Below are positions 23,341 through 49,106 of a stretch of DNA of 64,000 nucleotides, piece by piece. Source of the DNA: Butyrivibrio sp. (GTDB lineage: Bacteria > Bacillota > Clostridia > Lachnospirales > Lachnospiraceae); NCBI RefSeq assembly GCF_017433805.1, contig NZ_JAFRGN010000011.1:1-64000 (forward strand). Reading direction: 5' to 3'. The first letter of the stretch is position 1. The number at the start of each line of letters is the position of its first letter. The notes under the pieces were generated by a model. It saw only the letters and a list, made by a program, of their open reading frames with translations. It was not told the DNA's origin and did no database searches. Both the position numbers and the translations under genes were made by a program.

Positions 23341-24144
23341 TTACGCATTCACAGGAAGTTCTACGTAAAAACAACTTCCCTGTCCCAGGGTACTCTCGCA
23401 CCAGATCCTGCCCTGATGCTGTCCTACAATGCTCTTCACTATGGAAAGTCCAAGTCCACTGCTACTCTCTCCGCCAGGTGTTCTGGCGCCGCTTACTCTA
23501 TAGGTTCTGTCAAAAATATGATCTATTGCATCCTCTGGAATGCCAATGCCTGTATCTCTTACATAAAACACAGCTGAATCAGAGGTAGTATCAACCCCCA
23601 GCTCAATCTCTGCGCCATCTTCAGAATACTTTCTTGCATTGGTAAAAAGATTATCCAGTACTCTGCTCATCTTGCCAACGTCAATCATCACATCCCTGTC
23701 ATAGTCCTCAGGCACACTAAACACAAGCTCTCTTTTCGCAAACCTGTCATCTATCTGGGCTGCAAAAAAGTATTCCTCTAGGAACTGTGTCAATGGAATC
23801 CTCTGCACTTTAAGCTCATCTCTGCCATTTTCAAGACAGGTAAGATAGTAGAGATCCTGAACCAGTACTTCCAGTGTCTGCGCTCTGTTATCGATGAGCC
23901 TTATCATATCTGCCAGTTCCTCCGGAGAAACAGCACTGCCCTCTCCTTTGGCCTTGATATAATCTATAGCGCTTCTGATTGCAGTAAGAGGGGCCCTCAG
24001 ATCGTGTGAGATATTCTCAAGCATAATCTTTCTCTCAAGCTCTGCTTCCTGTAATTTAGCATTTGCTTCTAGTAACTTCTTGGATAACTCTGCAACAGTA
24101 TTGCTGTCTACCCCTGGTTGTTCAAATCTTCTTTTATCTGCCAC
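23341..24144 (-). CDS. Soluble histidine kinase
   Basis: A sensor kinase without membrane segments: a short N-terminal coiled coil (about 15-45), the H-box ENISHDLRAPL (His about residue 47), then N, G1 and G2 boxes of the HATPase domain (DNLFTNARKY, DTGIGIP, SSGLGLSIVK). I start it at GTG 24144, which has AGGGG seven nt upstream; a TTG at 24159 would add five residues. It is last in the operon B2-ABC-response regulator-kinase. With no sensor domain, it probably senses through a partner, perhaps the ABC exporter as in antimicrobial-peptide (Bce-type) modules; that link is inference. Confidence 0.9.
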   Translation of the reverse strand: MADKRRFEQPGVDSNTVAELSKKLLEANAKLQEAELERKIMLENISHDLRAPLTAIRSAIDYIKAKGEGSAVSPEELADMIRLIDNRAQTLEVLVQDLYYLTCLENGRDELKVQRIPLTQFLEEYFFAAQIDDRFAKRELVFSVPEDYDRDVMIDVGKMSRVLDNLFTNARKYSEDGAEIELGVDTTSDSAVFYVRDTGIGIPEDAIDHIFDRTYRVSGARTPGGESSSGLGLSIVKSIVGQHQGRIWCESTLGQGSCFYVELPVNA

Positions 24145-24165
24145 TGGCTTACCCCTCAAAATGCA

Positions 24166-24858
24166 TTATTCATGCTTAACAAGCTTATAGCCCTTAGACC
24201 ACACAGTTTCTATAAGATTATCTATTCCGCTCTGATCCTGAATCTTCTTGCGAAGTCTGGATACATTGACCATAACGTTCCTTCTGTCAGCCTCTATGTA
24301 TGTTCCCCACAGCTTGATTCCAATCTCTTCAAAAGAAATCTCTCTGTTGGCATTCTGTGCCAGAAACAGCATAAGGTCATACTCTTTATTGGAAAGAGGT
24401 ATCTCTGTTTCTTCAAAGAATAACTTGTGCTGCTCTCTGTCTACATAAAAAGGATCCAGATCAATTATCATATCATCCGCTTTTTTAGCTGACTTCTGCG
24501 TATTTCTCTTGATGTTAGCTACAATTCTGACATAGACTTCTCTAAGGCTATAAGGCTTTTCGATATAATCATCCCCGCCCGCTTCAAAGCCTTCTATCTT
24601 GTCATCCTCAGATACTTTTCCAGAAAGAAACAGAACCGGAACATTTGTAATATGTCTTATCTGTCTGCAAAGCGTATATCCATCTAGCTCTGGCATCATT
24701 ACATCCAGCAAAATACAGTCTGGTTTGAACTTCTCGATCATTCCAAGTGCATTCCTTGATTTGGAACAAACCTCCACTTTGCAGTTCTTTTCCTCGAAGA
24801 ACTTCTTATTTATCTCCAATACTTCAAGATCATCATCCACCATAAAAATCTTGTACAT
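24166..24858 (-). CDS. OmpR/PhoB-family response regulator
   Basis: A 230-residue regulator with an N-terminal receiver (acidic pocket MVDDD at residues 7-10, phospho-acceptor Asp52 in LLDVMMP, Lys in the FLSGK region) and a C-terminal winged-helix DNA-binding domain (about 130-230) ending ETVWSKGYKLV. It lies 5 nt downstream of the ABC gene and upstream of the kinase, so it is almost certainly the kinase's partner. Its targets may be the divergent precursor promoter and this operon itself, which is inferred from position only. Confidence 0.95.
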   Translation of the reverse strand: MYKIFMVDDDLEVLEINKKFFEEKNCKVEVCSKSRNALGMIEKFKPDCILLDVMMPELDGYTLCRQIRHITNVPVLFLSGKVSEDDKIEGFEAGGDDYIEKPYSLREVYVRIVANIKRNTQKSAKKADDMIIDLDPFYVDREQHKLFFEETEIPLSNKEYDLMLFLAQNANREISFEEIGIKLWGTYIEADRRNVMVNVSRLRKKIQDQSGIDNLIETVWSKGYKLVKHE

Positions 24859-24863
24859 AAAAC

Positions 24864-26561
24864 TTACCCCGCGATTGAAGACATCTTCTTATCCACAATC
24901 TGAATTTCCCTGTCACAATACTGCAAAACCGATCTTCTGTGAGTTATCAAAAGACATGTTGGAGAAGGATTCCACTTTCTAATTCCTTCTAACACGCTAA
25001 GCTCAGTACTCTCATCAAGAGATGATGTAGCCTCATCCAAAATAAGGAAAGGTGCTTTTCTTACAAGAGCTCTTGCTATGGCAATTCTCTGCGCCTGACC
25101 TTCTGAAATACCTATACCCTTTTCACCAATAACTGTATCAATACCGTCTGGAAAATCCTTTACAAAGTCATATGCTGCAGCACTCTTAAGTGCCTCAATG
25201 ATTTCCTCATCAGTAGCATCTTTTTTACCCATAAGGATATTTGCCTTGATACTACCACTAAAAAGTGTATTTCCCTGAGGTACATAGGCGATAAAGTTTC
25301 TAGCATCAGGACTTGCAGACATCGTCTCGCCCGCTGCATTATAAAACTCGATATTGCCCTTCATCTTGTTAGTAAATGCCATAATAAGTCGAACCAGTGT
25401 AGTCTTACCAATTCCAGACTTACCTACAATAGCTGTAAACTCCCCTGGCTTAAAATCTATACTTGCATCTTCAAATACAAGTTCATCAGTATAACCAAAA
25501 GAAATAGTGTCTACCTTGACCCCAATCTTCTCAGGTTCAATTCTGGCTCCAGTATATTCTTCCTTAGGAAGATTCTGAATCTCTATGATACGGCCAGCAG
25601 AAGCCAACATAGAAATAAGTCTTGGTACCAACTGTGCAAGGCTGATGATTGGAGACTGTATTCTGTTAACTAACTGCAGGAAAACTGTCATAGTACCATA
25701 AGTTATAGTATTACGCGCGATGCAGATAGCACCCCATGTAAATGCTCCAATATATCCAAGCTGGAAAGAAAGTCCCATGGCTGCTGAAGCAAACATATTC
25801 GTTCTGGTTCTCTTAAACACCCAATAAATACGCTCATCACGAAGTTTAGTGAGTCTGTCTTCTGAATAGTCCTCAAGACAAAAAGACTTTTCTATAAGAA
25901 TGTTGGCAAGACTCTCCTGCATAAATGAACGATATCTTGACTCTGACTCCTGTACCTTAACTGTAAGAACTTTAAGCCTCTTACCCAGTATAACGCTGGA
26001 AAGAAGTGCAATAGGAGCAACCATAAGTGCAAAAAGTGCAAGTCTGATATCATAATATGCCAAAGTAAAGAATGTTACTAAAAGCTCTACGATAAGTCTG
26101 ATGATAGTAGGTATAGTGGTAGCAATACCATCAGAAACTGTTCCTACATCACTGGTAAGTCGTGTCATCAAGTCTCCAGTATGATATTTAGAAACATCGA
26201 TCCAGCAAGTATCAAGAATTTTCCTATAAACATTCTTCCTGATACCAAACCCAAATTTCTCATATACTATAGTGGAAAAAAGACCACTTATTATTCCCAG
26301 AAACTGAGACCCCAATATTACCGCTATATAGACAACTATAATTTTCCAAAAATCAGAAAGATTACCTATTGATGCCCTATCGATCATTTCCTTACCGATA
26401 ACAGCCATACCAACAGACATAAGGGTTGCCAGAAGGTCAAAAACCATGATCAAAAAAAGTTGTGGCACATATGGTTTGGTATAACTAAGGCACCACTTAA
26501 AATATTCCCTTGCATCATCACGTCTGCGCCAATAACGTTTTAATTTCTCAATTTTCCCCAT
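24864..26561 (-). CDS. ABC exporter (fused permease-ATPase), RiPP-linked
   Basis: A 565-residue half-transporter with six N-terminal membrane helices (to about residue 330) and a C-terminal ATPase. Walker A is VGKSGIGKTT, the signature is ISEGQ rather than LSGGQ, and Walker B is FLILDEATSSLD. There is no N-terminal C39 peptidase, so it would export a peptide already cleaved by another protease. It starts 2 nt after the B2-type protease gene and in lasso clusters this place is held by the D-type exporter/immunity protein. Likely it exports the product of the precursor across the road. Confidence 0.92.
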   Translation of the reverse strand: MGKIEKLKRYWRRRDDAREYFKWCLSYTKPYVPQLFLIMVFDLLATLMSVGMAVIGKEMIDRASIGNLSDFWKIIVVYIAVILGSQFLGIISGLFSTIVYEKFGFGIRKNVYRKILDTCWIDVSKYHTGDLMTRLTSDVGTVSDGIATTIPTIIRLIVELLVTFFTLAYYDIRLALFALMVAPIALLSSVILGKRLKVLTVKVQESESRYRSFMQESLANILIEKSFCLEDYSEDRLTKLRDERIYWVFKRTRTNMFASAAMGLSFQLGYIGAFTWGAICIARNTITYGTMTVFLQLVNRIQSPIISLAQLVPRLISMLASAGRIIEIQNLPKEEYTGARIEPEKIGVKVDTISFGYTDELVFEDASIDFKPGEFTAIVGKSGIGKTTLVRLIMAFTNKMKGNIEFYNAAGETMSASPDARNFIAYVPQGNTLFSGSIKANILMGKKDATDEEIIEALKSAAAYDFVKDFPDGIDTVIGEKGIGISEGQAQRIAIARALVRKAPFLILDEATSSLDESTELSVLEGIRKWNPSPTCLLITHRRSVLQYCDREIQIVDKKMSSIAG

Positions 26562-26563
26562 AG

Positions 26564-27019
26564 TTATTTCTTTATCCTCGACTTAAATTTAGCTACTACA
26601 GCATATCCATCGGCTATGCCATTTCCCCCGGTCACATACATTTTTCCAACACGTATCCATGAGTGAGCAACCATCTTGCCATTGTCTTCTCTACAGCCAA
26701 GATACATGGTAGATTCAATTTTCTTTTCTGCCAAGAGTCTCTGGGCTGTAAGCGCTCTTACCAGGCATTTGCTCTCCCATTTGGTTTTGTTACACACCTG
26801 ATTAACAGCATACGCAACCTTTTTGCAGAAACGGTATTCATCAAGGCTCACATCTTCTGCTGATTCCTCACCCTCTATCCCCCATTTCTTATTAAGGGTG
26901 CCAGTCTTCTCGTACAGCATCTGGAATCTGAAACGAGCCGATAAAATCCAGGCTTTCAATGTTAAACTTTTATGCTCATTATATCGAATAAATCGATATC
27001 CTCTCATCAAAATGCTCAT
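26564..27019 (-). CDS. Lasso B2-type leader protease (transglutaminase-like)
   Basis: A 151-residue protein of the lasso B2 cysteine-protease type (transglutaminase-like fold), which removes the leader during maturation. The catalytic Cys is C85 (SKCLVRALTAQRLL) and His is H119 (AHSWIRVG), with the family spacing; I cannot place the third acidic residue with certainty. AGGTGA precedes the ATG. It is the first gene of a minus-strand operon diverging from the precursor gene (125 bp apart). The RRE partner (B1) is not fused or adjacent: it lies 6.5 kb away at 33508-33771. Confidence 0.85.
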   Translation of the reverse strand: MSILMRGYRFIRYNEHKSLTLKAWILSARFRFQMLYEKTGTLNKKWGIEGEESAEDVSLDEYRFCKKVAYAVNQVCNKTKWESKCLVRALTAQRLLAEKKIESTMYLGCREDNGKMVAHSWIRVGKMYVTGGNGIADGYAVVAKFKSRIKK

Positions 27020-27143
27020 TTGTCACCTATTATAATCAAAAATTAACGAAAAAAAGTTACAATTTTGTTAGATTTCTTTACAACGTTTATTTTTTCGCGA
27101 TATCCTAATTGTCAGATAATATACATCAATAGGAGGCAGACGT

Positions 27144-27335
27144 ATGAAAACTTGGAACACACCAGAAGTTAAAGAGCTCAAGCTTAGTGGAACTGAGCTC
27201 CACGGAACAGATCAGCGCCATATAGATGGCTTCGTCTATGATGCAGAAAGAGATACAAACTGGGCATCATACAGCGGCGGAAACGTAGACAAGGACGCAC
27301 AGGGAGCAGATGTAGTCATCCATCCTAGACCTTGA
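27144..27335 (+). CDS. RiPP precursor peptide, lasso-like leader
   Basis: A 63-residue peptide with AGGAGG eight nt before its ATG. The start has the lasso-type leader pattern W4-x2-P7-x-V9, L12 and Thr17. The end is polar and acidic, with three Gly, no Cys, and ends HPRP. If Thr17 is at -2, the core would start at Leu19 with acids at ring positions 5 and 10, both unusual. If the core starts at Gly21, Asp28 is at position 8 and a Gly1-Asp8 ring is possible, but Thr would be at -4. Either core is 43-45 residues, far longer than known lasso peptides, so trimming or a different chemistry is likely. It is the only plus-strand gene between 23 and 40 kb. Confidence 0.8.
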   Translation: MKTWNTPEVKELKLSGTELHGTDQRHIDGFVYDAERDTNWASYSGGNVDKDAQGADVVIHPRP

Positions 27336-27362
27336 TGAAACTATCATCCACTATTTTGTACT

Positions 27363-27390
27363 AAAAGGAGTCAGTGTTGGCTCCTTTTTA
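27363..27390. terminator. Bidirectional terminator, precursor / cyclase
   Basis: AAAAGGAGTCA and TTGGCTCCTTTT form a stem with one G-U pair and a 3-nt loop, with A- and T-runs on both sides. It stops the precursor transcript on the plus strand and overlaps the end of the cyclase gene on the minus strand. Confidence 0.85.
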
Positions 27391-29349
27391 TGTGTATTCA
27401 AGCAAAAATGCATTTAAAGCAGAAACCCTGACAATATCCATAACATTTTCTTCTGTTATTTCCTCGCGCATCAATTCCTTAACTTTTTGATCATCCATAT
27501 AGTCAGATATACTATCTACAAGCTCTAATTCCTTGTGATTATCCCCAAACCCACGGCATCTCATCACCTTATCAGCTGACTGTCGTCCCTTGTATCTAGT
27601 CTGTAATCTATCATAGTCAGGAAGATAATCATCGAGATACTCTCTTACAAGTCTTCTCTCAAGGCCATTGTATACGAACTGCTCCGGTGGAAGTGACGCT
27701 ATAAACTCCACAATTCTCTTATCCCTTGTCGGATCTCTTAAAAGAACTCCATGGTACAGACTGAACCTCGTATCATACAATCCTTGAGTTTGGGTAATAC
27801 TCACATCCCCAAGATTTCGGAACATCTTTTTGATTGGAATAACACTGTTTGGTCCATAAAAAGTAAAACGTTTTTTTAGCAACCTCTTGACTTTATATTT
27901 CCTGACAAGCTCCTGCCTTACGTATTTCTTGTCAAGAATATACTTAAAACTGCATTCCCCCCCAACAGAGAAAGCAATTCGTTCTATCAAAGTAGAAACA
28001 ATACCATCAAAAAGCACCTTTCTTGGTATACCATATCTTTCTCCAAAACGGGCAAGCTGCTCTTTAGCACCTAAGACATTTCCAGATAATAGTTTCTGGA
28101 AAAAAAGTTCCTTCATATCACCTTTGGATATGGTGAAATTACCAAACTGTCCATTAAGCAACACTTTACAGCCTTTTGCAGCCGCAGACCTGATAATATA
28201 GTCAAACCAGACCTGATTAAGACAAGCCTTACCTGGCACTTCATACATATGTATGAACCTATCCATCTCAGTAAACGGGCTTAATCCCTCACAGGAACAG
28301 AATTCCTGAACTATATTGGGATACCCGGCTATAATACGCTTCACACCTTCACTCTCATCAGGTTTTTCAAAACCACCTGTGGGGCGCTCAAAATCCTTCA
28401 GTGGAATAGATGTGAAGCCATAAAGCTTCTTTCCTTCTGATGCAAGCTTTCTTGCTGCAACTGTCGCTACAGAAGATGAATCAAGGCCGCTACTAATCAT
28501 AGCCGCTATTTCTCCATCAGTATCAATTGCATCTTCAACGCACCTGAAAAAGACTTCTCTGAACTTTTCTCTATATATCTTATCCTCAGGATTATCAGGC
28601 CATTTTATTTGAGGCCTATCGCTAACATTTTTCCCCGGATTAAAATATTCATACTCTTTACTATGCCAACTATTATCTCCGGTAATCTTAATATAATTAC
28701 CTCGAAGTGTATGTCTTATATACTCAAAAGGTGTTCTGTCAGGGAATACATACATGTAAGGTGATGAAGATGCCTGACTGCCAACCATAAACTTCTCATC
28801 TAATCCCCTGCACTCTTCAGGCATCGCGGCTAAGATAGGTTTAGTAAGCGTAGAAAAATATAGCTCATCTCCACATATGCTATAGTCTACACACCGCACG
28901 CCCATATGGTCTGTAAAAAGGTAAAACTCGTTAGACCTTCTGTCATAAACAGCAATAGCAAATAACCCATGTATATGGTCTACAAAATCACAGTGCCAGG
29001 TTTTCCAAGCCAAATAAGCAAGTTCACCATCAGGCGTATCGGCATTCAAGCCCACATGTCCCAACCCTTGAAGCTCATCTATAAGCTCAGGTCTTCCATT
29101 TAAAACTATATCAGCAGTAAAAACAGTATCGGACTCTTTGTCATATAATGGAAGCAGCTCGCCTGCAGCCCTCTTGTTAAAATACTGTATACCGCAGGAA
29201 AAAAATCCATTTTCAAAGAAGCAATCCTCGAATCGATCTATCACGCACTCCTCGTAGGGTTTCTTCATAAAAGAGCTTTTTTCTTTTAACTGTTCTATTG
29301 ACTTCCCCAAGTCGCCTTTTAGCTTAATAAATCCCCAAATTGCTGACAT
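27388..29349 (-). CDS. Asparagine-synthetase-like macrocyclase (lasso C-type)
   Basis: A 653-residue asparagine synthetase B homologue. The N-terminal glutaminase domain lacks the nucleophile: the start reads MSAIWGF, not MC, as in lasso cyclases. The C-terminal synthetase domain has the ATP-pyrophosphate loop SSGLDSSSVA (about residue 285). Lasso cyclases adenylate an Asp/Glu side chain and let the core N-terminus attack it. It is the last gene of the nine-gene glycan-RiPP operon, 3 nt after the HPrK-like gene, and faces the precursor. The missing Cys and the context favour a cyclase over true asparagine synthesis. Confidence 0.85.
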   Translation of the reverse strand: MSAIWGFIKLKGDLGKSIEQLKEKSSFMKKPYEECVIDRFEDCFFENGFFSCGIQYFNKRAAGELLPLYDKESDTVFTADIVLNGRPELIDELQGLGHVGLNADTPDGELAYLAWKTWHCDFVDHIHGLFAIAVYDRRSNEFYLFTDHMGVRCVDYSICGDELYFSTLTKPILAAMPEECRGLDEKFMVGSQASSSPYMYVFPDRTPFEYIRHTLRGNYIKITGDNSWHSKEYEYFNPGKNVSDRPQIKWPDNPEDKIYREKFREVFFRCVEDAIDTDGEIAAMISSGLDSSSVATVAARKLASEGKKLYGFTSIPLKDFERPTGGFEKPDESEGVKRIIAGYPNIVQEFCSCEGLSPFTEMDRFIHMYEVPGKACLNQVWFDYIIRSAAAKGCKVLLNGQFGNFTISKGDMKELFFQKLLSGNVLGAKEQLARFGERYGIPRKVLFDGIVSTLIERIAFSVGGECSFKYILDKKYVRQELVRKYKVKRLLKKRFTFYGPNSVIPIKKMFRNLGDVSITQTQGLYDTRFSLYHGVLLRDPTRDKRIVEFIASLPPEQFVYNGLERRLVREYLDDYLPDYDRLQTRYKGRQSADKVMRCRGFGDNHKELELVDSISDYMDDQKVKELMREEITEENVMDIVRVSALNAFLLEYT

Positions 29350-29352
29350 CTC

Positions 29353-30315
29353 TCATCCCTGCCTCTGCAGTTCCTTTACAAGTGCCTTTGTAAGTGCCTT
29401 TTTGGTATCAACGCCCTTACATCTTGTTACATCTATCACTTTAATCTGCGCAGCAAGAGCAACACACTTCATCATCTCCGCAGGCTCCAATTTTAATTCA
29501 TATCCATATAGCCAATCCAAAAAGAATCTGTCTGTTATAGCATTGACCTTTTCTGCCCCATCTATATTGACTATTCTGATTCCATTTTCAAATTCGCTCT
29601 CATCCTGACCTGCTGATGACAAGTGAAGTGAAATCATATAGTCTACTTTTCTCTTCTCGTTAACAAAAATATCTTTTCTAAGGTATGAAAACTTATCTCG
29701 TTCTTCATCTATATACCTCAGGGTATTAAGATCAAGCCCTCTGCTCACAGCAGCATCTCTGCATACCTTCTGTTCAGGAAAAGCCGGGAATGCGTAGGCA
29801 TTACCAGAAGAATCTATATCTATGACAGAAATATCATCCGCCATAAGCTTAGCTCCTTCATCAATAAGAGCCATTGCCGTTGTTGATTTACCAGTTCCAC
29901 TATCACCGCATACAAGGACTGTTTTATCTCCAAAGCTAAGTGTACTGCCATGAAGAACAACCTTTTTCCTCTGTGTCATTGCCAGTGCAATGCAATTTCC
30001 CATTAAAAATGATCTAGCGATTCCCATGTCAACATCGGCATACTTTTCGCAGATCATTCTGGTCTTACCATCTATCGTCTCTATAAGGAAATCTCCAGCC
30101 TGATTGTGGAACCACACTCCATTGTCTATAAAGCAATGAACAACACCCTTTTCTAGTAAAGAAGCATATTTCTTTTGAAGTGATGTTTCTTCCGTAATCT
30201 CAATGTGGATATCTGCAGGAGGTACCTTGCCCTCCTGTCCATCCCATTCCAGGAGCTGCGGAAATTCAGTATTCGATTCTACAACTAATCCATATAAACT
30301 ATATGTATACATCAA
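29353..30315 (-). CDS. HPr-kinase-like peptide kinase
   Basis: A 320-residue HPrK-related kinase. The P-loop GDSGTGKST lies at residues 137-145, preceded by His122 (VLHGSTLSF), with AKLMADDISVI after it. Such kinases in lasso clusters (paeninodin, pseudomycoidin) phosphorylate the C-terminal Ser of the peptide. The precursor here ends in Pro, so the target must differ (an internal Ser, Thr or Tyr, or a trimmed end) or lie elsewhere. Spacing to neighbours is 24 nt and 3 nt, in one operon. Substrate not established. Confidence 0.82.
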   Translation of the reverse strand: MMYTYSLYGLVVESNTEFPQLLEWDGQEGKVPPADIHIEITEETSLQKKYASLLEKGVVHCFIDNGVWFHNQAGDFLIETIDGKTRMICEKYADVDMGIARSFLMGNCIALAMTQRKKVVLHGSTLSFGDKTVLVCGDSGTGKSTTAMALIDEGAKLMADDISVIDIDSSGNAYAFPAFPEQKVCRDAAVSRGLDLNTLRYIDEERDKFSYLRKDIFVNEKRKVDYMISLHLSSAGQDESEFENGIRIVNIDGAEKVNAITDRFFLDWLYGYELKLEPAEMMKCVALAAQIKVIDVTRCKGVDTKKALTKALVKELQRQG

Positions 30316-30339
30316 TTCTCCAAATCCCTATTCCGCAAC

Positions 30340-31518
30340 TTATCTTCTAAAATTCAGATTGAGCCTATGATACATTTCGATCATCTTGGCAGTATTCTCA
30401 TCTCCTGTGGCTTTCAATAGCTCTTTGTGCTTCCTTGCCTCTTTACTACATGCAGCTGTACATCCTCTGACAATCCAGGCTACTGGAAGCAGAAAGGGCT
30501 TATGCTCAAGCCATTTATACTTCTCAACCATGAAGCTATAGGAAGGGAAATAATAGTGAATCCATGCCCCTTCAGCTACTGGAGTCTCTTTAGCAAGCTG
30601 TCCCCAGATTCCATTTTCATTCTTGCCATAGATACCGCTATCTACCATGTATGCAAAAAGATTCTCAAAAAACTCCGGGCACTGCGTATTATCAAGCCAG
30701 ATATACGCAAGCTTCTTCATATTATCTTCAAACTCCGTTAATCCACATTTGGCAAGTTCGTTCTCAAGATATTTTTTATCCATCTGAGATCCATACTTAT
30801 TCATGTAGATATATATATCCATCAGGTTTCTGATACCACAGCCAGTTTCAAAGAAATGCTTGGCCATATGTGCAATCATGTATACATAAAAGTCCTCATG
30901 AGAAAACTCATAAGTATACTTCTTGCCTTCCATAAGCTTGGCTCTGAAATTTTTGAAATAAACATGCTGTTTACGATCTGCATTTTCATCAAACAGGCAC
31001 CAGTGAACTTCCACATGAAGTTCCTTGCCTTTAGAAAAAATCATATGATGCTTAACAAGGCCATGATTAGTGTATCCAAGACTTTCCATAACCTTGGCAG
31101 CTTTATCCAGCGATTCATCATACACAACCAGATCAATATCGCTCATCTCACGTATCTCTGGTGATGGATAATCTTTCTTGATGATTGCTCCTTTAAGTAT
31201 CTGATGACGGATAACTTCTTTTTCAAATACATCAGTGATTTCTTTGGCTCCAACCATCTGAATAAACGTACCGAACGTGCTAATCTTCAGGTGCGCCCTC
31301 ATGCTTTCAGCCAAAGGCTCAGGTACATCCAACTTAATCAGAGAACTTACTATAGGATAGTAAATCTGCCCTTTAATAGCATAGTTAATAAGCTCTTGTA
31401 TATCCAGCCCATCTGGAACTGGAGCAGGCTTTCTCTTCTCAAAGCATGCTCTTACAAGCTCGCTATAATATATTCTAATTGCAGACATACATGCATCTGT
31501 CTGAACCTTATTTTGCAT
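30340..31518 (-). CDS. Nucleotidyltransferase-family protein (NTP_transf_5)
   Basis: A 392-residue protein with a nucleotidyltransferase core: LKGAIIKKDYPSPEIREMSD (residues about 108-127) has the acidic pair D127/D129 in SDID, followed by LHVEVHWCLFD. This family accompanies the HPrK-like kinase in several Firmicutes lasso clusters; in pseudomycoidin the homologue adds sugars to the phosphate. Here it sits between a GT32 gene and the kinase, consistent with a kinase-sugar tailoring pair. The length is normal. The reaction is inferred by analogy. Confidence 0.8.
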   Translation of the reverse strand: MQNKVQTDACMSAIRIYYSELVRACFEKRKPAPVPDGLDIQELINYAIKGQIYYPIVSSLIKLDVPEPLAESMRAHLKISTFGTFIQMVGAKEITDVFEKEVIRHQILKGAIIKKDYPSPEIREMSDIDLVVYDESLDKAAKVMESLGYTNHGLVKHHMIFSKGKELHVEVHWCLFDENADRKQHVYFKNFRAKLMEGKKYTYEFSHEDFYVYMIAHMAKHFFETGCGIRNLMDIYIYMNKYGSQMDKKYLENELAKCGLTEFEDNMKKLAYIWLDNTQCPEFFENLFAYMVDSGIYGKNENGIWGQLAKETPVAEGAWIHYYFPSYSFMVEKYKWLEHKPFLLPVAWIVRGCTAACSKEARKHKELLKATGDENTAKMIEMYHRLNLNFRR

Positions 31519-31553
31519 TTAAATGCACCTCAAACTTTTATATTATACTGTCC

Positions 31554-32453
31554 TTATAGCTCAGGAAGTGGCTTCCCACTCACTTGAGCTCTCGAATACT
31601 GATAAAAAGGAATTGCTTTATTAAGCTTCCAATACCTTATTTTTCTAACAATTACCTGAACTTTATCATAAACTACATCATTATTCTGAAGCAGTTTTTT
31701 TATTTTTCCTTTGGCTCCATCATCCTGCGCACCAACTCTCCAATTACCTGAATTCAGATGTATGGCATAATGTTTACCCGTTATAGTTCCTATCTCAAAT
31801 AACTCTTTAGGATAAATAACAAAATCCTTCAAATCCTGGTATCTGTTGTTGAGAACAAACTCAGGATAATGCTTCAAAATATAATATGTATAATAATAAT
31901 TATTTGTCGTGTATCCATGTACGTACAATTTGCCGTCTTTATACTCAAACACCTTCTCTTTAGTTTTTCTAGGCCCTGGCAATAAGACGGTATCATAATA
32001 CATATCCAAAATTCCCTTTGTTAAAGGATTACCTTTCTCAGAACCTATAATTGCAGTTCCTACAGAACAGTCAAATATGAAGTTCAAAAAAGCCGCATTG
32101 TCCAAGAGATCATCAAAGCTTTTATTAACTTTAACATCTGTGTCCAAATATATTCCGCCGTACTCATAAAGCGCCTTTACTCTGTAAAAATCACTAATGA
32201 AAGCGAACTTCTTATCCTTATAAGCATTTTTTATGAAATCATTCTCATCAAAACTACAGTTTGATTCATCCCATCGCATTATCGTATAGCCCTGTAGTTT
32301 TTCCCACGTTGCAAAGCACTTCTGTAAATCATCCGGTAATGGTTTCCCGCCAAACCAGCAATAATGAATTATCTTGGGTATTTTGGTATTACTTTGCTCA
32401 CTTATTCTTTTCAGTACTTCAACATCGGTAATAACATTTATAGATAATGACAT
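31554..32453 (-). CDS. GT32-type glycosyltransferase
   Basis: A glycosyltransferase with the capsular/Och1-type fold: PKIIHYCWFGGKPLP near the start, then FISDFYRVKALYEYGGIYLD with the DxD motif (LDTDV) that binds the nucleotide-sugar metal. It acts in the cytoplasm on a lipid or peptide acceptor. I start it at ATG 32453, which has AAAGGG ten nt upstream; a TTG at 32495 would only add 14 residues. It follows the GT2 gene in the same operon. Confidence 0.9.
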   Translation of the reverse strand: MSLSINVITDVEVLKRISEQSNTKIPKIIHYCWFGGKPLPDDLQKCFATWEKLQGYTIMRWDESNCSFDENDFIKNAYKDKKFAFISDFYRVKALYEYGGIYLDTDVKVNKSFDDLLDNAAFLNFIFDCSVGTAIIGSEKGNPLTKGILDMYYDTVLLPGPRKTKEKVFEYKDGKLYVHGYTTNNYYYTYYILKHYPEFVLNNRYQDLKDFVIYPKELFEIGTITGKHYAIHLNSGNWRVGAQDDGAKGKIKKLLQNNDVVYDKVQVIVRKIRYWKLNKAIPFYQYSRAQVSGKPLPEL

Positions 32454-32495
32454 GACATCCAATCCCTTTCTATAACGCCAATATATGGAGAACAA

Positions 32496-33503
32496 TCATC
32501 CAATCATTACCTTGGAAAGAATATAAGCATAAGGACCACAATTCCACTTAGCTACTGACCTGATATACATTCCTATCTTGCCTGTAAAATACTTATTCTT
32601 GCGGTAATATGGGAATTTCTTATTCACAAAATCAAAAGTTTTATCAAAGAGCTCCCTTCTCAAATAACCATTAGGAACTCGCCCAATTCTGCTGAAATTA
32701 CTACAGAATGCAATCTTAACGCAAAAATACTCAAGCTCATCCTTGTACTGGTTAAAAATACATTTCCTGCTAAAGAAATCAGTTATATCATCCAGTACTT
32801 TAAAAATGTCTCCAACCTTTGCTCCCAGATTCTTGGTCATGGTTGAACTCTGTCTGACACTATAATAGACGAGCTTCTCATCAAGATATGCATGTTTTTT
32901 AATGAAAGGAAGTGATTTGATATAAAAAGAAGTATCCTCGTAGATCATCCCTTCTGGGAAAAATACATCGTTATCAACCAATGCACTTTTCTTATATAAC
33001 TTATTCCAAGGTGAAACCTGAGGATTAAGAAAAAGCTCCCTGACATCACTATGAGCACTTATTGTGCCTCTTGTCCCTATTTCCTGGTAGGTTGGAAAAG
33101 CACCATCTTCTGAAGGAATTTCCAACATACTGTGATAGTGGCATTCTACGAGGTCTGCATCCTGAGTTCTTGCCAGATTCCAGAGTTTCTCATACATTGT
33201 GACATCAACATAATCATCAGAATCTGCAAAACCTACATACTCACCCTTTGCCATCTTGATTCCAAGATTTCTTGCTGTTGCCTGCCCACCATTTAACTTG
33301 TGATAAACTCTGATAAGTTCTGGATACTGCTCCTCATACTCTCTTAAAATGTCAGGTGAACTATCAGTTGAGCCATCATTGACAGCTATAATCTCTATCT
33401 CTGAATGAGGAATTGTCTGATTAACAAGCGCATCAAGGCATCTCCTCAAATACTTCTCAGTGTTATACACTGGAACAACTACACTTACCATACTCCCCAC
33501 CAT
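32496..33503 (-). CDS. GT2-family glycosyltransferase
   Basis: A 335-residue GT-A enzyme: SVVVPVYNTEKYL at the start, VNDGSTDSSPDIL for the nucleotide-sugar site and FADSDDYVD (about residues 98-106) as the DxD-like metal site. No membrane helices. Start at ATG 33503, or four codons later at a second ATG. The gene begins 4 nt after the PqqD-like gene, so the two are translationally close. Sugar and acceptor are unknown; likely an exopolysaccharide repeat unit or a tailored RiPP. Confidence 0.9.
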   Translation of the reverse strand: MVGSMVSVVVPVYNTEKYLRRCLDALVNQTIPHSEIEIIAVNDGSTDSSPDILREYEEQYPELIRVYHKLNGGQATARNLGIKMAKGEYVGFADSDDYVDVTMYEKLWNLARTQDADLVECHYHSMLEIPSEDGAFPTYQEIGTRGTISAHSDVRELFLNPQVSPWNKLYKKSALVDNDVFFPEGMIYEDTSFYIKSLPFIKKHAYLDEKLVYYSVRQSSTMTKNLGAKVGDIFKVLDDITDFFSRKCIFNQYKDELEYFCVKIAFCSNFSRIGRVPNGYLRRELFDKTFDFVNKKFPYYRKNKYFTGKIGMYIRSVAKWNCGPYAYILSKVMIG

Positions 33504-33507
33504 CAGT

Positions 33508-33771
33508 TTAAATAAAATCCAGCTCCTTAAGCTTGCCGAGGAAATCCATTACAGATGTAGTACACTCCTCTTCAGATACATCATATTCACTTAACAGCTT
33601 TTTGATGATGTCCTCTACAGTAATTTCTTCCTGAATCAGATCCCAAATGTCATTTCCAGCACCCTTTATCATAAAGTATTTGCCAGACTCAAAATCTATC
33701 ATAACCTTTTCCCCAGATAAATCTGTGACATTGAGCTGTTTCTTAAGCTTAACAACTTCTTTCATTTCCAT
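33508..33771 (-). CDS. PqqD-like RiPP recognition element (lasso B1-type)
   Basis: An 87-residue PqqD-family protein: VMIDFESGKYFMIKGAGNDIWDLI then a helical half ending FLGKLKELDFI, the winged-helix fold that binds RiPP leader peptides through a beta strand. In lasso systems this B1 protein presents the leader to the B2 protease and cyclase. Here it is placed between a polyprenyl glycosylphosphotransferase and a GT2 gene, not next to B2. The position ties the glycan genes to the peptide pathway, or shows that the peptide genes were inserted into a glycan operon. Confidence 0.88.
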   Translation of the reverse strand: MEMKEVVKLKKQLNVTDLSGEKVMIDFESGKYFMIKGAGNDIWDLIQEEITVEDIIKKLLSEYDVSEEECTTSVMDFLGKLKELDFI

Positions 33772-33790
33772 TTATAAACTCCTCCAGAAA

Positions 33791-35194
33791 TTAATATGCC
33801 CCTTTTTTAGTTAAAAGAACTCCCACCGTCTTAAACAAAATAGCTATATCTGCGTATAAAGACCAATTATCAATATATCTAAGATCAAGCTCTACAACTT
33901 CATCAAAGTCCGATATGCTGTTCCTGCCACTGATCTGCCATAAGCCCGTGACTCCTGGCTTGATGCTGATACGTCTCCACTGGCCACGTTTGTACTGAGA
34001 AACCTCATCAACTGTCGGTGGTCTTGTCCCCACAAGACTCATATCACCCTTAATAACATTAAACAGCTGTGGAAGCTCATCAATACTGGTCTTTCGAATA
34101 AACTTACCAACCTTAGTTACTCTTGGATCATTCTTGATTTTGAACATAAAGCCATCCATTTCATTCTGTTCCAAAAGTTCTTCCTTACGGTCCTCTGCAT
34201 CCGCACACATGCTGCGGAATTTGTATATATTGAAGGTTCGTCCATTCTGACCTACCCTGACCTGTTTAAATATTACCGGCCCAGGAGAATCAAGCTTAAT
34301 AGCTATTGCAGTTATCAGCATTACAGGAGATAAAACTATGGTTGCAATAATGCTGATTACCAGATCCATCAACCTCTTAATAGCCTGCTCATAGCTATTA
34401 AGTGCTATCGTATGATAAGTAATTAGCGGAAAAGTTCCAACTGAGCTCACATAACTATTGGATCTATGCATCCTGTGAGAATACGACACATCAAGCACAA
34501 CCTTAACAGTAACACCCATTTCAAGGCAAATATCTATATATTTCTGTATCTGAGCGATATTGTCATCACTATGCTGTATGAAATATACCTGATCTATCTC
34601 ATTGTTCCTGAGTATCTGTTCAAGATCACCAATTATTCCAAGAGTGTTGAATACCCTCTTTTCAGGCATTTCTCTGTCCAATATATATCCCACTTCATCA
34701 ACTTTAACACTTGTCTTATTCAGGAAATAGTTGAACTTCTCATACTCCTCGAAAGTACCAACAAATGCAGCCCTTGGAGCCTGATGATCTGTAAATATCA
34801 TCTGCATAAATCTGCTGATGACTATATTCACACATATGGCGATATAGGTCCACAATAGATAATACAAATGAAATCTCCTGACGTTATAATGCGGATTATA
34901 TACATACATAAGCCCCATAGTAACACCAGCTGCCAAAAGCCAGGACTTACTGATTATCTTCCAAAACCTATCTATATAGAAAAAGAATGTCACATTATAA
35001 ATTCTGGCTTCTTTGTTGGACAAAATATAAATCACTATAAAAACAACAACAAGCGCGAAGCATTTGAGATTGGTCGATTCCAAAATAACCTTCCCAAACG
35101 CCTTGCGCTCTATAAAATACACTATTAAGAGGACCAGTATATCCTCAATCATTTGAATGGTATTTGTATTTGCTCCTTTATTACTACGATTCAT
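33791..35194 (-). CDS. Polyprenyl glycosylphosphotransferase
   Basis: A 467-residue initiating sugar-phosphate transferase that loads the first sugar-1-phosphate onto undecaprenyl phosphate. Several N-terminal membrane helices, a central NAD-like soluble domain (about 135-240) and the C-terminal catalytic domain with KLDSPGPVIFKQVRVGQNG, NIYKFRSM and SIDELPQLFNVIKGDMSLVG are complete. It normally starts a surface-polysaccharide repeat unit, here between an Alg13/14-like pair and the PqqD-like gene. Confidence 0.95.
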   Translation of the reverse strand: MNRSNKGANTNTIQMIEDILVLLIVYFIERKAFGKVILESTNLKCFALVVVFIVIYILSNKEARIYNVTFFFYIDRFWKIISKSWLLAAGVTMGLMYVYNPHYNVRRFHLYYLLWTYIAICVNIVISRFMQMIFTDHQAPRAAFVGTFEEYEKFNYFLNKTSVKVDEVGYILDREMPEKRVFNTLGIIGDLEQILRNNEIDQVYFIQHSDDNIAQIQKYIDICLEMGVTVKVVLDVSYSHRMHRSNSYVSSVGTFPLITYHTIALNSYEQAIKRLMDLVISIIATIVLSPVMLITAIAIKLDSPGPVIFKQVRVGQNGRTFNIYKFRSMCADAEDRKEELLEQNEMDGFMFKIKNDPRVTKVGKFIRKTSIDELPQLFNVIKGDMSLVGTRPPTVDEVSQYKRGQWRRISIKPGVTGLWQISGRNSISDFDEVVELDLRYIDNWSLYADIAILFKTVGVLLTKKGAY

Positions 35195-35221
35195 CTGTAT
35201 GCTGCCCTAACAATTCTTGTC

Positions 35222-35698
35222 TTAGTCAAAGATATTGATAAACCTCATTATAGTCTCCTCAATGTTGCCGCCCTTAAGCTCATATGGTTTAAAATCAAAC
35301 GTCCTTGCTGTTTCAATATAATCCTTTAATTCATCCACTTCCTCACACCGTAATACACACCCCTTCGATGAGAAAGCCTCCGCTATCTGACACTGATGGT
35401 CATCTACATGTTCTAAATACTTATTCTTACGTGGTACTACTATTATCGGTTTCTTAGCATTTATCCCGGAAATAATAGTTCCAACTCCTGCGTGCGTTAC
35501 TAATACACTACACTCAGCTATTTTCTTGTTGTATTCATCTACGTCCATGAAATCTGTATATTCGCAGTTCTTAGGCACATAATCAGACCATCCCTTTTGC
35601 ACAAATACCTCTTCAGATATTTGCGTTGCCAATTCATCTGCCGCCTTAACAAGTCTATTCATTTGAAATTTCTGTGTGCCTAAAGTGACAAAAATCAA
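35222..35698 (-). CDS. Alg13-like glycosyltransferase catalytic subunit
   Basis: The C-terminal half of a GT28-type split glycosyltransferase: IFVTLGTQKFQMNRL at the start and THAGVGTIISGINAKKPIIV for UDP-GlcNAc or UDP-sugar binding. I start it at TTG 35698, with GGAGG nine nt upstream and overlapping the stop of the partner gene (TTGA); a longer reading from 35752 has no ribosome site. With the Alg14-like partner it adds the second sugar to the undecaprenyl-linked intermediate, as in PssD/PssE-type pairs. Confidence 0.88.
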   Translation of the reverse strand: MIFVTLGTQKFQMNRLVKAADELATQISEEVFVQKGWSDYVPKNCEYTDFMDVDEYNKKIAECSVLVTHAGVGTIISGINAKKPIIVVPRKNKYLEHVDDHQCQIAEAFSSKGCVLRCEEVDELKDYIETARTFDFKPYELKGGNIEETIMRFINIFD

Positions 35699-36168
35699 AA
35701 TATACCGCCTCCAAGCATCGATTTCGGATATTTCTGAAGCATGTCTTCCCACTGTACCATAAATAGATCTGACATGTTATACACAAGTTTCCCAGTAAGA
35801 GAAGGCTCATTGACTCTTGCAAAAGACTCAACATAAATAACCTTAATACCTAGAAACTTGCCCACCACGCAAAATGGGTATGCTACTAAAGCACCAGTTG
35901 TAATAATGAAATCAGGATTTTCTCTAAGAAGGATGACGAGTGTCCTAAAGAACAACCAAATAAACTTAGGCAAAAAATTAATCTGCCTTCTGTTCATCAT
36001 AGGAACATAATACTTCTTTTCACAGAAGTCCTTTATAACGAAGTCACTTTTCTCAGTGACAAGAAAGCAATCATATGCCCCCTCAATCCCTTTAAGTCTG
36101 GAGATTTCCTCTAAATGTCCTCCTGAAGATGCAACAAAGCAGATCTTCTTTGTTCCCTCTTTATCCAT
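35695..36168 (-). CDS. Alg14-like membrane-anchored subunit
   Basis: The N-terminal partner of the split glycosyltransferase: KICFVASSGGHLEEISRLK is the Alg14 signature, and a membrane-associating segment (about residues 60-80) and a second hydrophobic segment anchor the pair. ATG 36168 has GGAGG five nt upstream; a GTG at 36192 would add eight residues. It is the first gene of the nine-gene operon running down to the cyclase at 27388. Confidence 0.9.
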   Translation of the reverse strand: MDKEGTKKICFVASSGGHLEEISRLKGIEGAYDCFLVTEKSDFVIKDFCEKKYYVPMMNRRQINFLPKFIWLFFRTLVILLRENPDFIITTGALVAYPFCVVGKFLGIKVIYVESFARVNEPSLTGKLVYNMSDLFMVQWEDMLQKYPKSMLGGGIF

Positions 36169-36192
36169 ACATTCCTCCACATTCAAATACAC

Positions 36193-36365
36193 GGGTTCCC
36201 CCTAAAACAACGTATATCTGTCCCCCAAATGCGAGACGCCATAAGCTACATGTACAATATCTACTTTATACTCATTTCAATCATAAAATCTATCATATTT
36301 GTTAGAATTTTTGAATAGCTAAATCGAATTAATTATTATATTTTCTAATTTTTTCATAATTTGAC
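36193..36365 (-). other. Leader region of the glycan-RiPP operon
   Basis: An AT-rich stretch between the terminator of the membrane-protein operon and the Alg14-like gene. It must hold the operon promoter; several TATAAT-like hexamers occur, but none has a convincing -35 at the right spacing. No small ORF resembling a second precursor was found. Confidence 0.4.
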
Positions 36366-36432: not shown

Positions 36433-37965
36433 TTAGCTTTTTATTTTATAGAGTCTGATTGCTACTTTTTTGCCATTATCATATATACTGCCCTCTTTGA
36501 TAACTTCATAAGAGAAATCATCGAAGGAAACAACGTTGGCAATCTGATTCTTGGTCATCCCCTGGATTATCTGATCATATTGCTCTGTATCACATAATGT
36601 CATCCTAGTCACAATATAATCGGTTTCTTTATTGTTAACATAACTATACTGTAAATCTGTTAGTTCTGTTCCTCCTTGATTAGTAGCCACATAAGCTCTC
36701 CACTCTGGAAGATAATCAGCAGCAAAGTAAAAGCCTGTATCAAGTGGTCCAAAGTACAAAAGAGAATAATCCTTAATATCCCCTTCATCCATCTCTCTTA
36801 CAAAAGAGTACTGAACTGTATCCTCTTTAGCAACTAACATCTCATTTGTATTCTGGCAAAGAACATATGCTCCTAAAGTAAAGAGCACAGCAATACAAGC
36901 AACCTGCCGCTTTTTAACCACAATATGCTTACGAGCTAAAACATCTACTATGGGACCAAATCCAAATATAGCAAATACCATAACAGGCATTGAAGTATAA
37001 GCATGTGGATGGCCACAGTTCAATAGTATGAAAGTCAGTACGAATGTTACAATAGAAAAAATGAACAAGCGAACTTTCTTGCTATATAACATCCAGACAA
37101 ATCCAACAAAAAGGAAAGCCAGAGCAGGGAAATTACGCTTAGCTATCTGCATGTATAGCGCAAAACGCAGATTCCCTAAAAATCCAAGACCAGTTCCATA
37201 CATAAAAACATTCTCATAAAAATATAATCTAAAGAGAATATCAAGAGAATCATTAGCAGCAAAATAGATCAGGACTGGTATGGTTACAATTATCGTTCCG
37301 ATAACAATAAATAAAACCGCTTCCCCTACCCTTGTTACTTCTCTGCGCTTAATGGCATGTATTAATACAAACACAAAAATAATAATATACATAATGCAAA
37401 GATTAAACTTAGTCCAAAAGAGTAATCCTGCACCTATGCCAAGGAAAAGCAACTCCACTCTATTAGGAAAAATTCCAGTTTCCCAATATCTTATTCCCAA
37501 ATATACAAGGAAAGAAAAAATGCACAGACTAAGTTCCTCTGGTCCGCCACCGCCGGCGAAAAGACGTGATGAAAAAGTAACTGTAGCCAAAGCAAACGCA
37601 ATGCCTGATTCTATTTTTTCAACGTCACAGAAGAGCTTTAATGTTTTTATTGAGTAGTATAAGAAAAGCGTTGCACTTATAAGTTCTACGAAAAATACAC
37701 CAAAAAATGTCTTCTCATTAAACATCAATGAAAGCGCATAAATAAAGAAAATAATTGGTCCTTTTTGATCCGCAAGATCTCTATATGGGACTTTACCATG
37801 CAGCATTCCTCTTCCTATGTTGTAATATACGTTTGCATCCCCCCAACTATTTAGTGGATACAAAAATGAAGATTTTGAACAGATTGCTAATATTATAAAC
37901 GAGGCAATCAGGCATTTTAACATTATGGCTACGTAATCTTTACTATAATGATTTAACTTGTTCAT
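36433..37965 (-). CDS. Polytopic GT-C-like membrane protein, copy 1
   Basis: A protein of about 510 residues with roughly ten membrane helices. After the first helix comes an extracytoplasmic loop with SWGDANVYYNIGRGMLHGKV and then PYRDLADQKGPIIFF, shared with the neighbouring paralogue; the early Asp and helix layout resemble lipid-linked sugar (GT39/GT-C) transferases. The C-terminal soluble part includes YLPEWRAYVATNQ. ATG 37965 has AGGGGAA upstream; an upstream TTG at 38013 is less likely. Donor and acceptor unknown. Confidence 0.82.
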   Translation of the reverse strand: MNKLNHYSKDYVAIMLKCLIASFIILAICSKSSFLYPLNSWGDANVYYNIGRGMLHGKVPYRDLADQKGPIIFFIYALSLMFNEKTFFGVFFVELISATLFLYYSIKTLKLFCDVEKIESGIAFALATVTFSSRLFAGGGGPEELSLCIFSFLVYLGIRYWETGIFPNRVELLFLGIGAGLLFWTKFNLCIMYIIIFVFVLIHAIKRREVTRVGEAVLFIVIGTIIVTIPVLIYFAANDSLDILFRLYFYENVFMYGTGLGFLGNLRFALYMQIAKRNFPALAFLFVGFVWMLYSKKVRLFIFSIVTFVLTFILLNCGHPHAYTSMPVMVFAIFGFGPIVDVLARKHIVVKKRQVACIAVLFTLGAYVLCQNTNEMLVAKEDTVQYSFVREMDEGDIKDYSLLYFGPLDTGFYFAADYLPEWRAYVATNQGGTELTDLQYSYVNNKETDYIVTRMTLCDTEQYDQIIQGMTKNQIANVVSFDDFSYEVIKEGSIYDNGKKVAIRLYKIKS

Positions 37966-37984
37966 TGCTTCCCCTACCAACACT

Positions 37985-46974: not shown

Positions 46975-46989
46975 TTCTCCAATCCAGTT

Positions 46990-47463: not shown

Positions 47464-47479
47464 TTTGTTTGCTCCCGTA

Positions 47480-48310: not shown

Positions 48311-48334
48311 TAGTCCCCCTAAATACGCTGGTGT

Positions 48335-49075: not shown

Positions 49076-49106
49076 ATTCCCCTGTATGTTGCCACAATAC
49101 TATTTT

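What the first reader, a model, noticed from the sequence alone, without database searches (positions are those of the whole stretch)
23341..36168. Lasso-type RiPP genes interleaved with a surface-glycan operon
One operon of nine genes alternates glycan functions (Alg14/13 pair, glycosylphosphotransferase, GT2, GT32) with peptide-maturation functions (PqqD-like RRE, nucleotidyltransferase, HPrK-like kinase, cyclase), all within 40 nt of each other. The RRE lies between the glycosylphosphotransferase and GT2, away from its B2 partner. In known lasso clusters the kinase and nucleotidyltransferase decorate the peptide with phosphate and sugar. Here a whole undecaprenyl-linked glycan set is added, suggesting a peptide carrying a larger glycan, or a peptide attached to a lipid-linked oligosaccharide. 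I know of no described example.
Basis: partly seen in the sequence, partly recalled or inferred. Interest (0 to 1): 0.8.

Follow-up and report, generated by a model that had tools for sequence, protein, structure and literature searches.

The report
Lasso-peptide regulon that includes exopolysaccharide
In a Butyrivibrio-like gut bacterium, genes for maturing a predicted knotted "lasso" peptide sit inside an operon that likely starts a surface sugar coat, and the peptide gene and that operon are preceded by the same conserved DNA motif, likely a shared switch, so the two are likely made together; lasso genes near capsule genes were already known, but this shared motif looks new.

Summary
In detail: nine minus-strand genes (36192-27388) interleave glycan genes (Alg14, Alg13, phosphoglycosyltransferase PGT, GT2, GT32) with lasso genes (RRE, PF14907 nucleotidyltransferase, HPrK-like kinase, cyclase), gaps at most 35 nt. 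The precursor (27144-27335, plus) and a B2-ABC-RR-HK operon lie beside it. The interleaving is conserved: of 79 genus genomes, 12 have the PGT ortholog, each with the RRE beside it; 12 other RRE genomes lack that PGT. Larger relatives are Wzz/Wzy polysaccharide operons with lasso genes embedded. Here the flippase, polymerase and chain-length genes lie 28-41 kb upstream.

New: a 31-nt repeat motif found upstream of most lasA genes collected here also precedes the glycan operon in 11 of 12 genomes; 840 kb of background has no hit of 15 bits or more. The glycan genes therefore likely belong to the lasso regulon.

"No described example" is wrong: lasso clusters with glycosyltransferases in Butyrivibrio (PMC7533575) and inside capsule loci of Bacilli (PMC13381572) are in print. 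Nothing here shows peptide and glycan covalently joined. Best reading: one regulon with two co-produced products. New variant of a known kind.

The parts
35695..36192 (-). Alg14/PssD: membrane anchor of the second-sugar glycosyltransferase (predicted)
   Evidence: PF08660 72 bits, PssD NF041549 160 bits, both over cut-off
35222..35752 (-). Alg13/PssE: catalytic partner (predicted)
   Evidence: PF04101, PssE NF041548 139.5 bits over cut-off
33791..35194 (-). PGT: polyprenyl glycosylphosphotransferase (TIGR03025; WbaP-like catalytic domain), predicted to start the lipid-linked glycan
   Evidence: PF02397 239 bits; TIGR03025 396 bits; PDB WbaP E 3e-54
33508..33771 (-). RRE (B1, PqqD-like) of lasso type
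   Evidence: NF033536 81.3 bits (cut-off 80); alignment A3 against PDB: 9x90 lasso PqqD chaperone 3e-19, 9x8z PqqD family protein 9e-4
32496..33503 (-). GT2 glycosyltransferase
   Evidence: PF00535 119 bits; orthologs 66-85% in clade operons
31554..32495 (-). GT32-type glycosyltransferase
   Evidence: PF04488 50.5 bits; orthologs 61-68% in clade operons, absent in G445
30340..31518 (-). NTP5: PF14907 nucleotidyltransferase, candidate sugar/nucleotidyl transferase on the phosphopeptide
29353..30315 (-). HPrK-like kinase, predicted to phosphorylate the precursor
   Evidence: PF07475 36.4 bits; H122, K143, D160, D161 invariant in 8, in keeping with the His-Lys-Asp-Asp motif of lasso kinases
27388..29349 (-). 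CYC: Asn-synthetase-like lasso cyclase (C protein, predicted)
   Evidence: PF00733 71 bits; NF033535 132 bits, sub-cut-off; no Cys at residue 2, SGLDS motif kept
27144..27335 (+). lasA precursor, 63 aa; predicted core from G21, ring G21-D28
   Evidence: 7 homologs; W4, P7, T17, G21, D28 invariant in the 8 aligned; resembles LasA of B. proteoclasticus in PMC7533575 Table 3
26564..27019 (-). B2 leader peptidase
   Evidence: NF033537 over cut-off; C85 and H119 invariant in 9
24864..26561 (-). ABC exporter
   Evidence: PF00664, PF00005
24166..24858 (-). OmpR-type response regulator, candidate binder of the shared motif
   Evidence: Response_reg + Trans_reg_C
23341..24159 (-). sensor histidine kinase
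   Evidence: HisKA + HATPase_c
27053..27083 (+). shared regulatory motif in the lasA/B2 divergent region (function inferred)
   Evidence: top hit of the window, 34.1 and 32.7 bits with two matrices trained without this site
36278..36317 (.). same motif before the Alg14 operon (overlapping hits on both strands)
   Evidence: second and third hits, 28.8 and 25.3 bits; 29.5 bits
36374..36410 (-). terminator-like hairpin upstream of Alg14, likely operon boundary
   Evidence: 16 pairs followed by a T-rich run
27363..27388 (.). terminator-like hairpin between the convergent CYC and lasA
   Evidence: fold z -1.55, 15 of 200 shuffles fold as well
36433..40544 (-). two PMT_2-like membrane proteins and an acyltransferase upstream, possible glycan decoration genes
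   Evidence: one PMT_2 hit just below cut-off; absent before the operon in G445
45910..49832 (-). capsule assembly genes: LytR-CpsA-Psr, small ORF, BY-kinase-like, Wzz, CpsB

Best explanation
This is a likely lasso-peptide regulon with a polysaccharide arm: a nine-gene operon mixes four lasso-maturation genes with the predicted first half of a Wzx/Wzy surface-polysaccharide pathway and is preceded by the same 31-base motif as the lasso precursor gene, so that the cluster's own response regulator likely switches peptide and polysaccharide on together. Predicted peptide branch: the RRE binds the WxxP leader, B2 cuts it, the HPrK-like kinase phosphorylates a serine, the PF14907 enzyme caps the phosphate with a sugar or nucleotide, the cyclase closes the Gly-Asp ring, and the ABC protein exports it. 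Predicted glycan branch: the PGT, Alg14/Alg13, GT2 and GT32 build an undecaprenyl-diphosphate oligosaccharide that the Wzx/Wzy/Wzz set 28-41 kb upstream flips and polymerises. Shown by sequence: gene order, conservation, PGT-RRE coupling, the shared motif and the separately placed Wzy. Inferred: all enzyme activities, regulator identity, co-expression. Untested: whether the peptide is the signal for the histidine kinase, and whether it touches the glycan.
For: Operon structure and domains. Conserved order Alg14-Alg13-PGT-RRE: 12 of 79 genus genomes have the PGT ortholog (66% identity or more), all 12 with the RRE next to it on the same strand; 0 of the other 67 have that PGT. Full-length PGT at E 1e-115 or better: 10 of 13 genomes with a lasso RRE of 60 bits or more against 8 of 384 others (Fisher 5e-13; thresholds chosen after seeing the lists, and most pairs there are not adjacent). 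Large form: the RRE sits between PGT and Wzz/BY-kinase in Wzy operons. The one Wzy homolog found per genome lies inside the operon in 5 of 7 genomes and 34-39 kb from the PGT in the window genome and G445, with Wzx, VanZ, CotH and Wzz neighbours and no PGT. Shared motif: a matrix trained on 59 lasA upstreams, no Alg14 promoter in training, finds 11 of 12 Alg14 promoters at 15 bits or more; 0 such hits in 400 kb of G445 and 440 kb of G000. Exact pattern over whole genomes: 29 matches against 3 for the backward control in the 12 genomes (9 of the 12 have a match); 1 against 4 in four RRE-less genomes. Lasso and EPS genes rise together in stationary phase in Paenibacillus alginolyticus (PMC13381572, passage).
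Against: The motif at Alg14 could serve only to express the RRE, NTP5, kinase and cyclase that share that operon, with the glycan genes as passengers. Regulator binding is not shown. One of 12 promoters (Su6) scores only 10.4. MA2020, Blautia, E. cellulosolvens and KH1T2 have a PGT next to or near the RRE but no site of 15 bits or more at Alg14. Five further sites of 15.7-20.3 bits lie elsewhere in the clade stretches (one in the window, two in LC3010, two in G465). 12 of 24 RRE-bearing genus genomes lack this PGT. Wzy was assigned from a sub-threshold Pfam hit of the Su6 copy (24.1 against 31.7), and the window copy is only 38-40% identical to the operon copies. Eight of the 29 exact pattern matches lie at neither lasso nor Alg14 loci, and three of the 12 genomes have no exact match.
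Confidence: 0.55

Rival explanations
1. Covalent conjugate: the phosphorylated lasso peptide carries, or is tethered to, the glycan built by the PGT and glycosyltransferases.
For: Kinase and PF14907 enzyme are of the PsmK/PsmN kind that add phosphate then hexoses to a lasso Ser (passages). The operon itself lacks polymerase and flippase. Compact clusters L126 and L127 have PGT as the only recognised glycan gene, next to the RRE, in L126 between eno-like and truA-like housekeeping ORFs (names recalled), with no PF14907 gene detected. Iterative glycosylation of a lasso peptide is in print (Sun 2025; title in reference lists only).
Against: No oligosaccharyltransferase-like gene was recognised in the operon. 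The same glycan genes head Wzz/Wzy operons in relatives, and Wzx/Wzy homologs are present 28-41 kb away here. The only core serines are internal (S42, S44), not C-terminal.
Confidence: 0.22
2. Passenger reading: capsule loci are insertion hot spots and the lasso genes simply ride in one, the shared motif serving only the lasso genes.
For: Lasso and related RiPP clusters show patchy gain and loss typical of mobile conflict genes (PMC13381572 section 12). Arrangements differ between genera. In 54 of 80 RRE loci no PGT ORF of 200 aa or more was found (many of these stretches are short, and two carry a PGT fragment at the edge).
Against: Gene-by-gene interleaving rather than a block; PGT ortholog never without the RRE in 79 genomes; the operon starts beside a dapF-like gene (name recalled) in compact and large forms.
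Confidence: 0.15
3. Bacteriocin reading: the lasso peptide is an antimicrobial and the co-expressed glycan shields the producer.
For: Cluster has exporter and two-component system; PMC7533575 treats such clusters as candidate antimicrobials (passages).
Against: I recognised no immunity gene among the cluster's genes; no activity data; fits the co-regulation data no better than signalling.
Confidence: 0.08

Closest known systems
Paeninodin-like lasso clusters inside capsular polysaccharide loci of Bacilli (Popov et al. 2026, PMC13381572; sections 6 and 12 and passages seen)
   Same: Discrete RRE with WxxP leader, B2, cyclase, HPrK kinase, NTP transferase, MsbA-like exporter, surrounded by polysaccharide genes; lasso and EPS genes up together in stationary phase
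   Different: Here RRE and cyclase are single genes inside one operon with PGT and glycosyltransferases, order conserved in Butyrivibrio, a two-component system is included, and lasA and the glycan operon share a promoter motif; the parts of that paper that I saw describe no such motif
Butyrivibrio lasso clusters (PMC7533575, 2020; passages seen)
   Same: Same LasA family by resemblance (B. proteoclasticus B316 and FD2007, VCD2006); GT2/EpsH, NTP, HPrK, HK and RR noted in Butyrivibrio clusters
   Different: The passages seen do not describe the PGT/Alg13-14 operon, the Wzx/Wzy split or the shared motif
Pseudomycoidin (PsmK, PsmN)
   Same: Kinase plus nucleotidyltransferase-annotated enzyme that decorate a lasso Ser with phosphate and hexoses (PMC9266682, passages)
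   Different: C-terminal Ser there; here no C-terminal Ser, and a PGT and glycosyltransferases share the operon. I did not compare PsmN with the PF14907 protein
Wzx/Wzy exopolysaccharide operons
   Same: PGT, PssD/PssE, GT2 and GT32, with Wzz/BY-kinase and Wzy in the large form, and Wzz, Wzy and Wzx nearby in the compact form
   Different: Lasso genes embedded and transcription likely under a lasso-regulon motif

Membership tests
Lasso peptide cluster (paeninodin type) | Discrete RRE of the lasso PqqD family | tested here: met
   NF033536 81.3 bits, cut-off 80; nearest solved structure is a lasso PqqD chaperone, 9x90, E 3e-19
Lasso peptide cluster (paeninodin type) | B2 transglutaminase-like leader peptidase | tested here: met
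   NF033537 68.4 bits, cut-off 33; C85 and H119 invariant in 9
Lasso peptide cluster (paeninodin type) | Asn-synthetase-like cyclase scoring over the family cut-off | tested here: not met
   NF033535 132 bits against cut-off 525, though it is the best-scoring NCBIfam model
Lasso peptide cluster (paeninodin type) | Precursor with WxxP leader motif and Gly1 to Asp/Glu ring partner at 7-9 | tested here: met
   W4NTP7; G21 to D28 would be an 8-residue ring; G21 and D28 invariant in the 8 aligned
Lasso peptide cluster (paeninodin type) | Thr at the penultimate leader position | tested here: not met
   T17 is at -4 if the core starts at G21
Lasso peptide cluster (paeninodin type) | C-terminal Ser as kinase target | tested here: not met
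   Precursor ends HPRP; core serines are internal, S42 and S44
Lasso peptide cluster (paeninodin type) | Kinase His-Lys-Asp-Asp residues | tested here: met
   H122, K143, D160, D161 invariant in 8; motif from PMC9266682, not aligned to a characterised kinase
Lasso peptide cluster (paeninodin type) | Threaded lariat product | not testable with these tools
   needs mass spectrometry or NMR
Wzx/Wzy exopolysaccharide operon | Initiating PGT | tested here: met
   PF02397, TIGR03025
Wzx/Wzy exopolysaccharide operon | Wzx, Wzy and Wzz in the same operon | tested here: not met
   Homologs lie at C4:64114-77484, 28-41 kb away; in relatives Wzy is in the operon in 5 of the 7 genomes, with Wzz
Linear polyphosphorylated peptide (LPP) cluster | SipW-like signal peptidase and YxxP leader | tested here: not met
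   B2 and a cyclase are present instead; leader motif is W4xxP7; no S24/S26-type peptidase among the 10 proteins or the RR, HK and ABC (leader)

The most novel reading that the evidence does not exclude
A lasso peptide acts as an extracellular autoinducer: exported by the ABC protein, sensed by the adjacent histidine kinase, it drives an OmpR-type regulator that binds the same repeats before lasA, the B2 operon and the alg14-pgt operon, making exopolysaccharide production a quorum trait. This would be a lasso-peptide pheromone system controlling a surface polysaccharide.
Probability: 0.3. Interest if true: 0.88.

Novelty: new variant of a known kind. Interest (0 to 1): 0.62.

Why it matters
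PMC13381572 (section 12) states that the biological roles of paeninodins are unknown and only speculates about biofilm because they often sit at capsule loci. Here the link becomes a concrete, testable regulatory prediction: one DNA motif, one candidate regulator, two kinds of target. If true, lasso peptides in Butyrivibrio are tied to cell-surface polysaccharide rather than being only bacteriocins, and one regulator deletion in a cultured rumen strain would test it.
Full report
1. What is there. The window lies in a Butyrivibrio-like genome: the closest RRE relatives in named contigs are Butyrivibrio spp., up to 91% identical. Its partner operon B2-ABC-RR-HK (27019-23341) follows. A terminator-like hairpin precedes Alg14 and another separates the cyclase from the convergent precursor gene.

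2. Membership of the lasso side. RRE and B2 pass curated cut-offs; the RRE family is closest to a solved lasso PqqD chaperone. The kinase keeps H, K, D, D, in keeping with the residues reported for lasso kinases (PMC9266682, passages). The precursor has WxxP, a candidate G21-D28 ring and 7 homologs; PMC7533575 Table 3 prints similar precursors from B. proteoclasticus and VCD2006. Against: the cyclase is far below the NF033535 cut-off, the leader Thr is at -4 rather than -2, and there is no C-terminal Ser. So it works like a paeninodin-type lasso cluster but is not a strict member.

3. Conservation of the interleaving. From 80 RRE loci (maps) a fixed order Alg14-Alg13-PGT-RRE emerged in Butyrivibrio. 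Longer stretches show two forms. The large form, roughly 22-37 kb, reads Alg14-Alg13-PGT-RRE-Wzz/BY-kinase-GT2-GT2-Wzy-Caps_synth-GT32-VanZ-CotH-NTP5, then further glycosyltransferases, B2-ABC-RR-HK and HPrK-CYC, with variations between genomes (domains of representative genes; the rest by BLAST to them). The compact form is that of the window and of G445, whose LasA is identical to that printed for B. proteoclasticus B316: Alg14-Alg13-PGT-RRE-GT2-(GT32)-NTP5-HPrK-CYC, lasA, B2-ABC-RR-HK between dapF-like and thrS-like ORFs (names recalled from the sequences).

4. Unbiased tests. In 79 genomes of the genus an RRE match occurs in 24. The PGT ortholog (66% identity or more) occurs in 12, the window's own included; the next full-length matches are 52% or less (one 55% over residues 106-467; catalytic-domain-only matches reach 60%). 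In all 12 the RRE is adjacent on the same strand. One of these PGT reading frames has an in-frame TAG (G449) and one is matched only in part (G482; ORF of 433 aa with the RRE 29 nt downstream). In 397 family genomes, full-length PGT matches at E 1e-115 or better occur in 10 of 13 genomes with an RRE of 60 bits or more and in 8 of 384 others. The thresholds were set after seeing the lists, at most four candidates per genome were scored, and only some pairs are close together (G047 about 0.15 kb, G171 6 kb, others 19-33 kb or on other contigs). A PGT tree of 47 sequences of 330 aa or more puts the 18 RRE-adjacent copies in two clades, but its unlinked sample was not random.

5. The missing half. 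The one Wzy homolog of this family found in each of seven genomes is inside the operon in five, and 34-39 kb from the PGT in the window genome and G445. There it sits with Wzx, GT92, pyruvyl transferase, CotH, VanZ, GT2 and Wzz/BY-kinase, without a PGT (domains tested for the window genome, G445 by BLAST and position). CpsB, Wzz, BY-kinase and LytR-CpsA-Psr genes lie in between (45910-49832). The glycan genes of the window operon are therefore best read as the initiating half of a split Wzx/Wzy pathway.

6. The shared motif. Comparing promoter regions led to a 31-nt motif with TTACA/TTAGA-type repeats 10-11 nt apart, as expected for OmpR-type regulators (recalled), found upstream of 68 of 77 non-redundant lasA-like genes, mostly at -70 to -117 (training data). 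A matrix trained on 59 of 68 lasA upstreams found the motif before Alg14 in 11 of 12 operons at 15 bits or more (16.7-29.5; Su6 10.4). The lasA upstreams of the lasso clusters linked to these operons were left out of training (17 ids excluded); lasA loci elsewhere in two of these genomes (L144, L183, L184) stayed in; no Alg14 promoter was used. In the 64-kb window the two best places are the lasA/B2 region (32.7) and the Alg14 promoter (29.5); a third (17.3) is inside a pectate-lyase-like gene. LC3010 and G465 have two further sites each (15.7-20.3) that are not at lasA or directly at Alg14. Background: none at 15 or more in 400 kb of G445 and 440 kb of G000 (two of 13.5 and 14.5 in G000); 1 at 15 or more in 30 Markov copies of the window. 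An exact pattern over whole genomes gave 29 matches against 3 for the backward control in the 12 genomes (9 of 12 have a match; by position I assign 7 to Alg14, 14 to lasso/RiPP precursor, kinase or cyclase loci, 8 elsewhere), and 1 against 4 in four RRE-less genomes. Over the 80 loci, 79 sites of 18 bits or more: 67 before a precursor-like ORF, 8 at Alg14, 4 elsewhere (most lasA sites there are training data).

8. Prior art and novelty. PMC7533575 (passages) and PMC13381572 (sections 6 and 12 and passages) already report lasso clusters with glycosyltransferases or inside capsule loci. The latter calls the role unknown and shows lasso and EPS genes rising together in stationary phase. New here, as far as the listed searches show, are the conserved Butyrivibrio operon with the RRE locked to its PGT, the split polymerase, and the lasA motif in front of the glycan operon. 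Verdict: new variant of a known kind, with a sharp regulatory prediction.

Noticed in passing
L126:693-11916, L127, L119: Compact lasso cluster B2-702aa-CYC-lasA-HPrK-ABC-PGT-RRE-HK-RR (complete in L126) where a PGT is the only recognised glycan gene; the 702-aa protein has a weak Transglut_core hit.
   Followed up: partly
L052 (Butyrivibrio fibrisolvens D1 plasmid pNP243): A lasso cluster, an LPP-like PqqD plus S24/S26 peptidase pair and PssD/PssE next to a large glycosyltransferase cluster, on a plasmid.
   Followed up: no
L160:7345-10995 and others: A recurring VTC - DUF4956 - CotH trio inside or beside these polysaccharide operons.
   Followed up: no
L313, L315 (G445 and G397): Short MKNW.KPE precursor-like ORFs beside an HPrK-like gene carry the same motif, suggesting further RiPPs in the regulon.
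   Followed up: partly
L241:7821-8954 (AE3009): The PGT frame has an in-frame TAG in this assembly, sequencing error or decay unknown.
   Followed up: no
window 16784-19882: Large pectate-lyase-like protein with CBM77 and choline-binding repeats.
   Followed up: no
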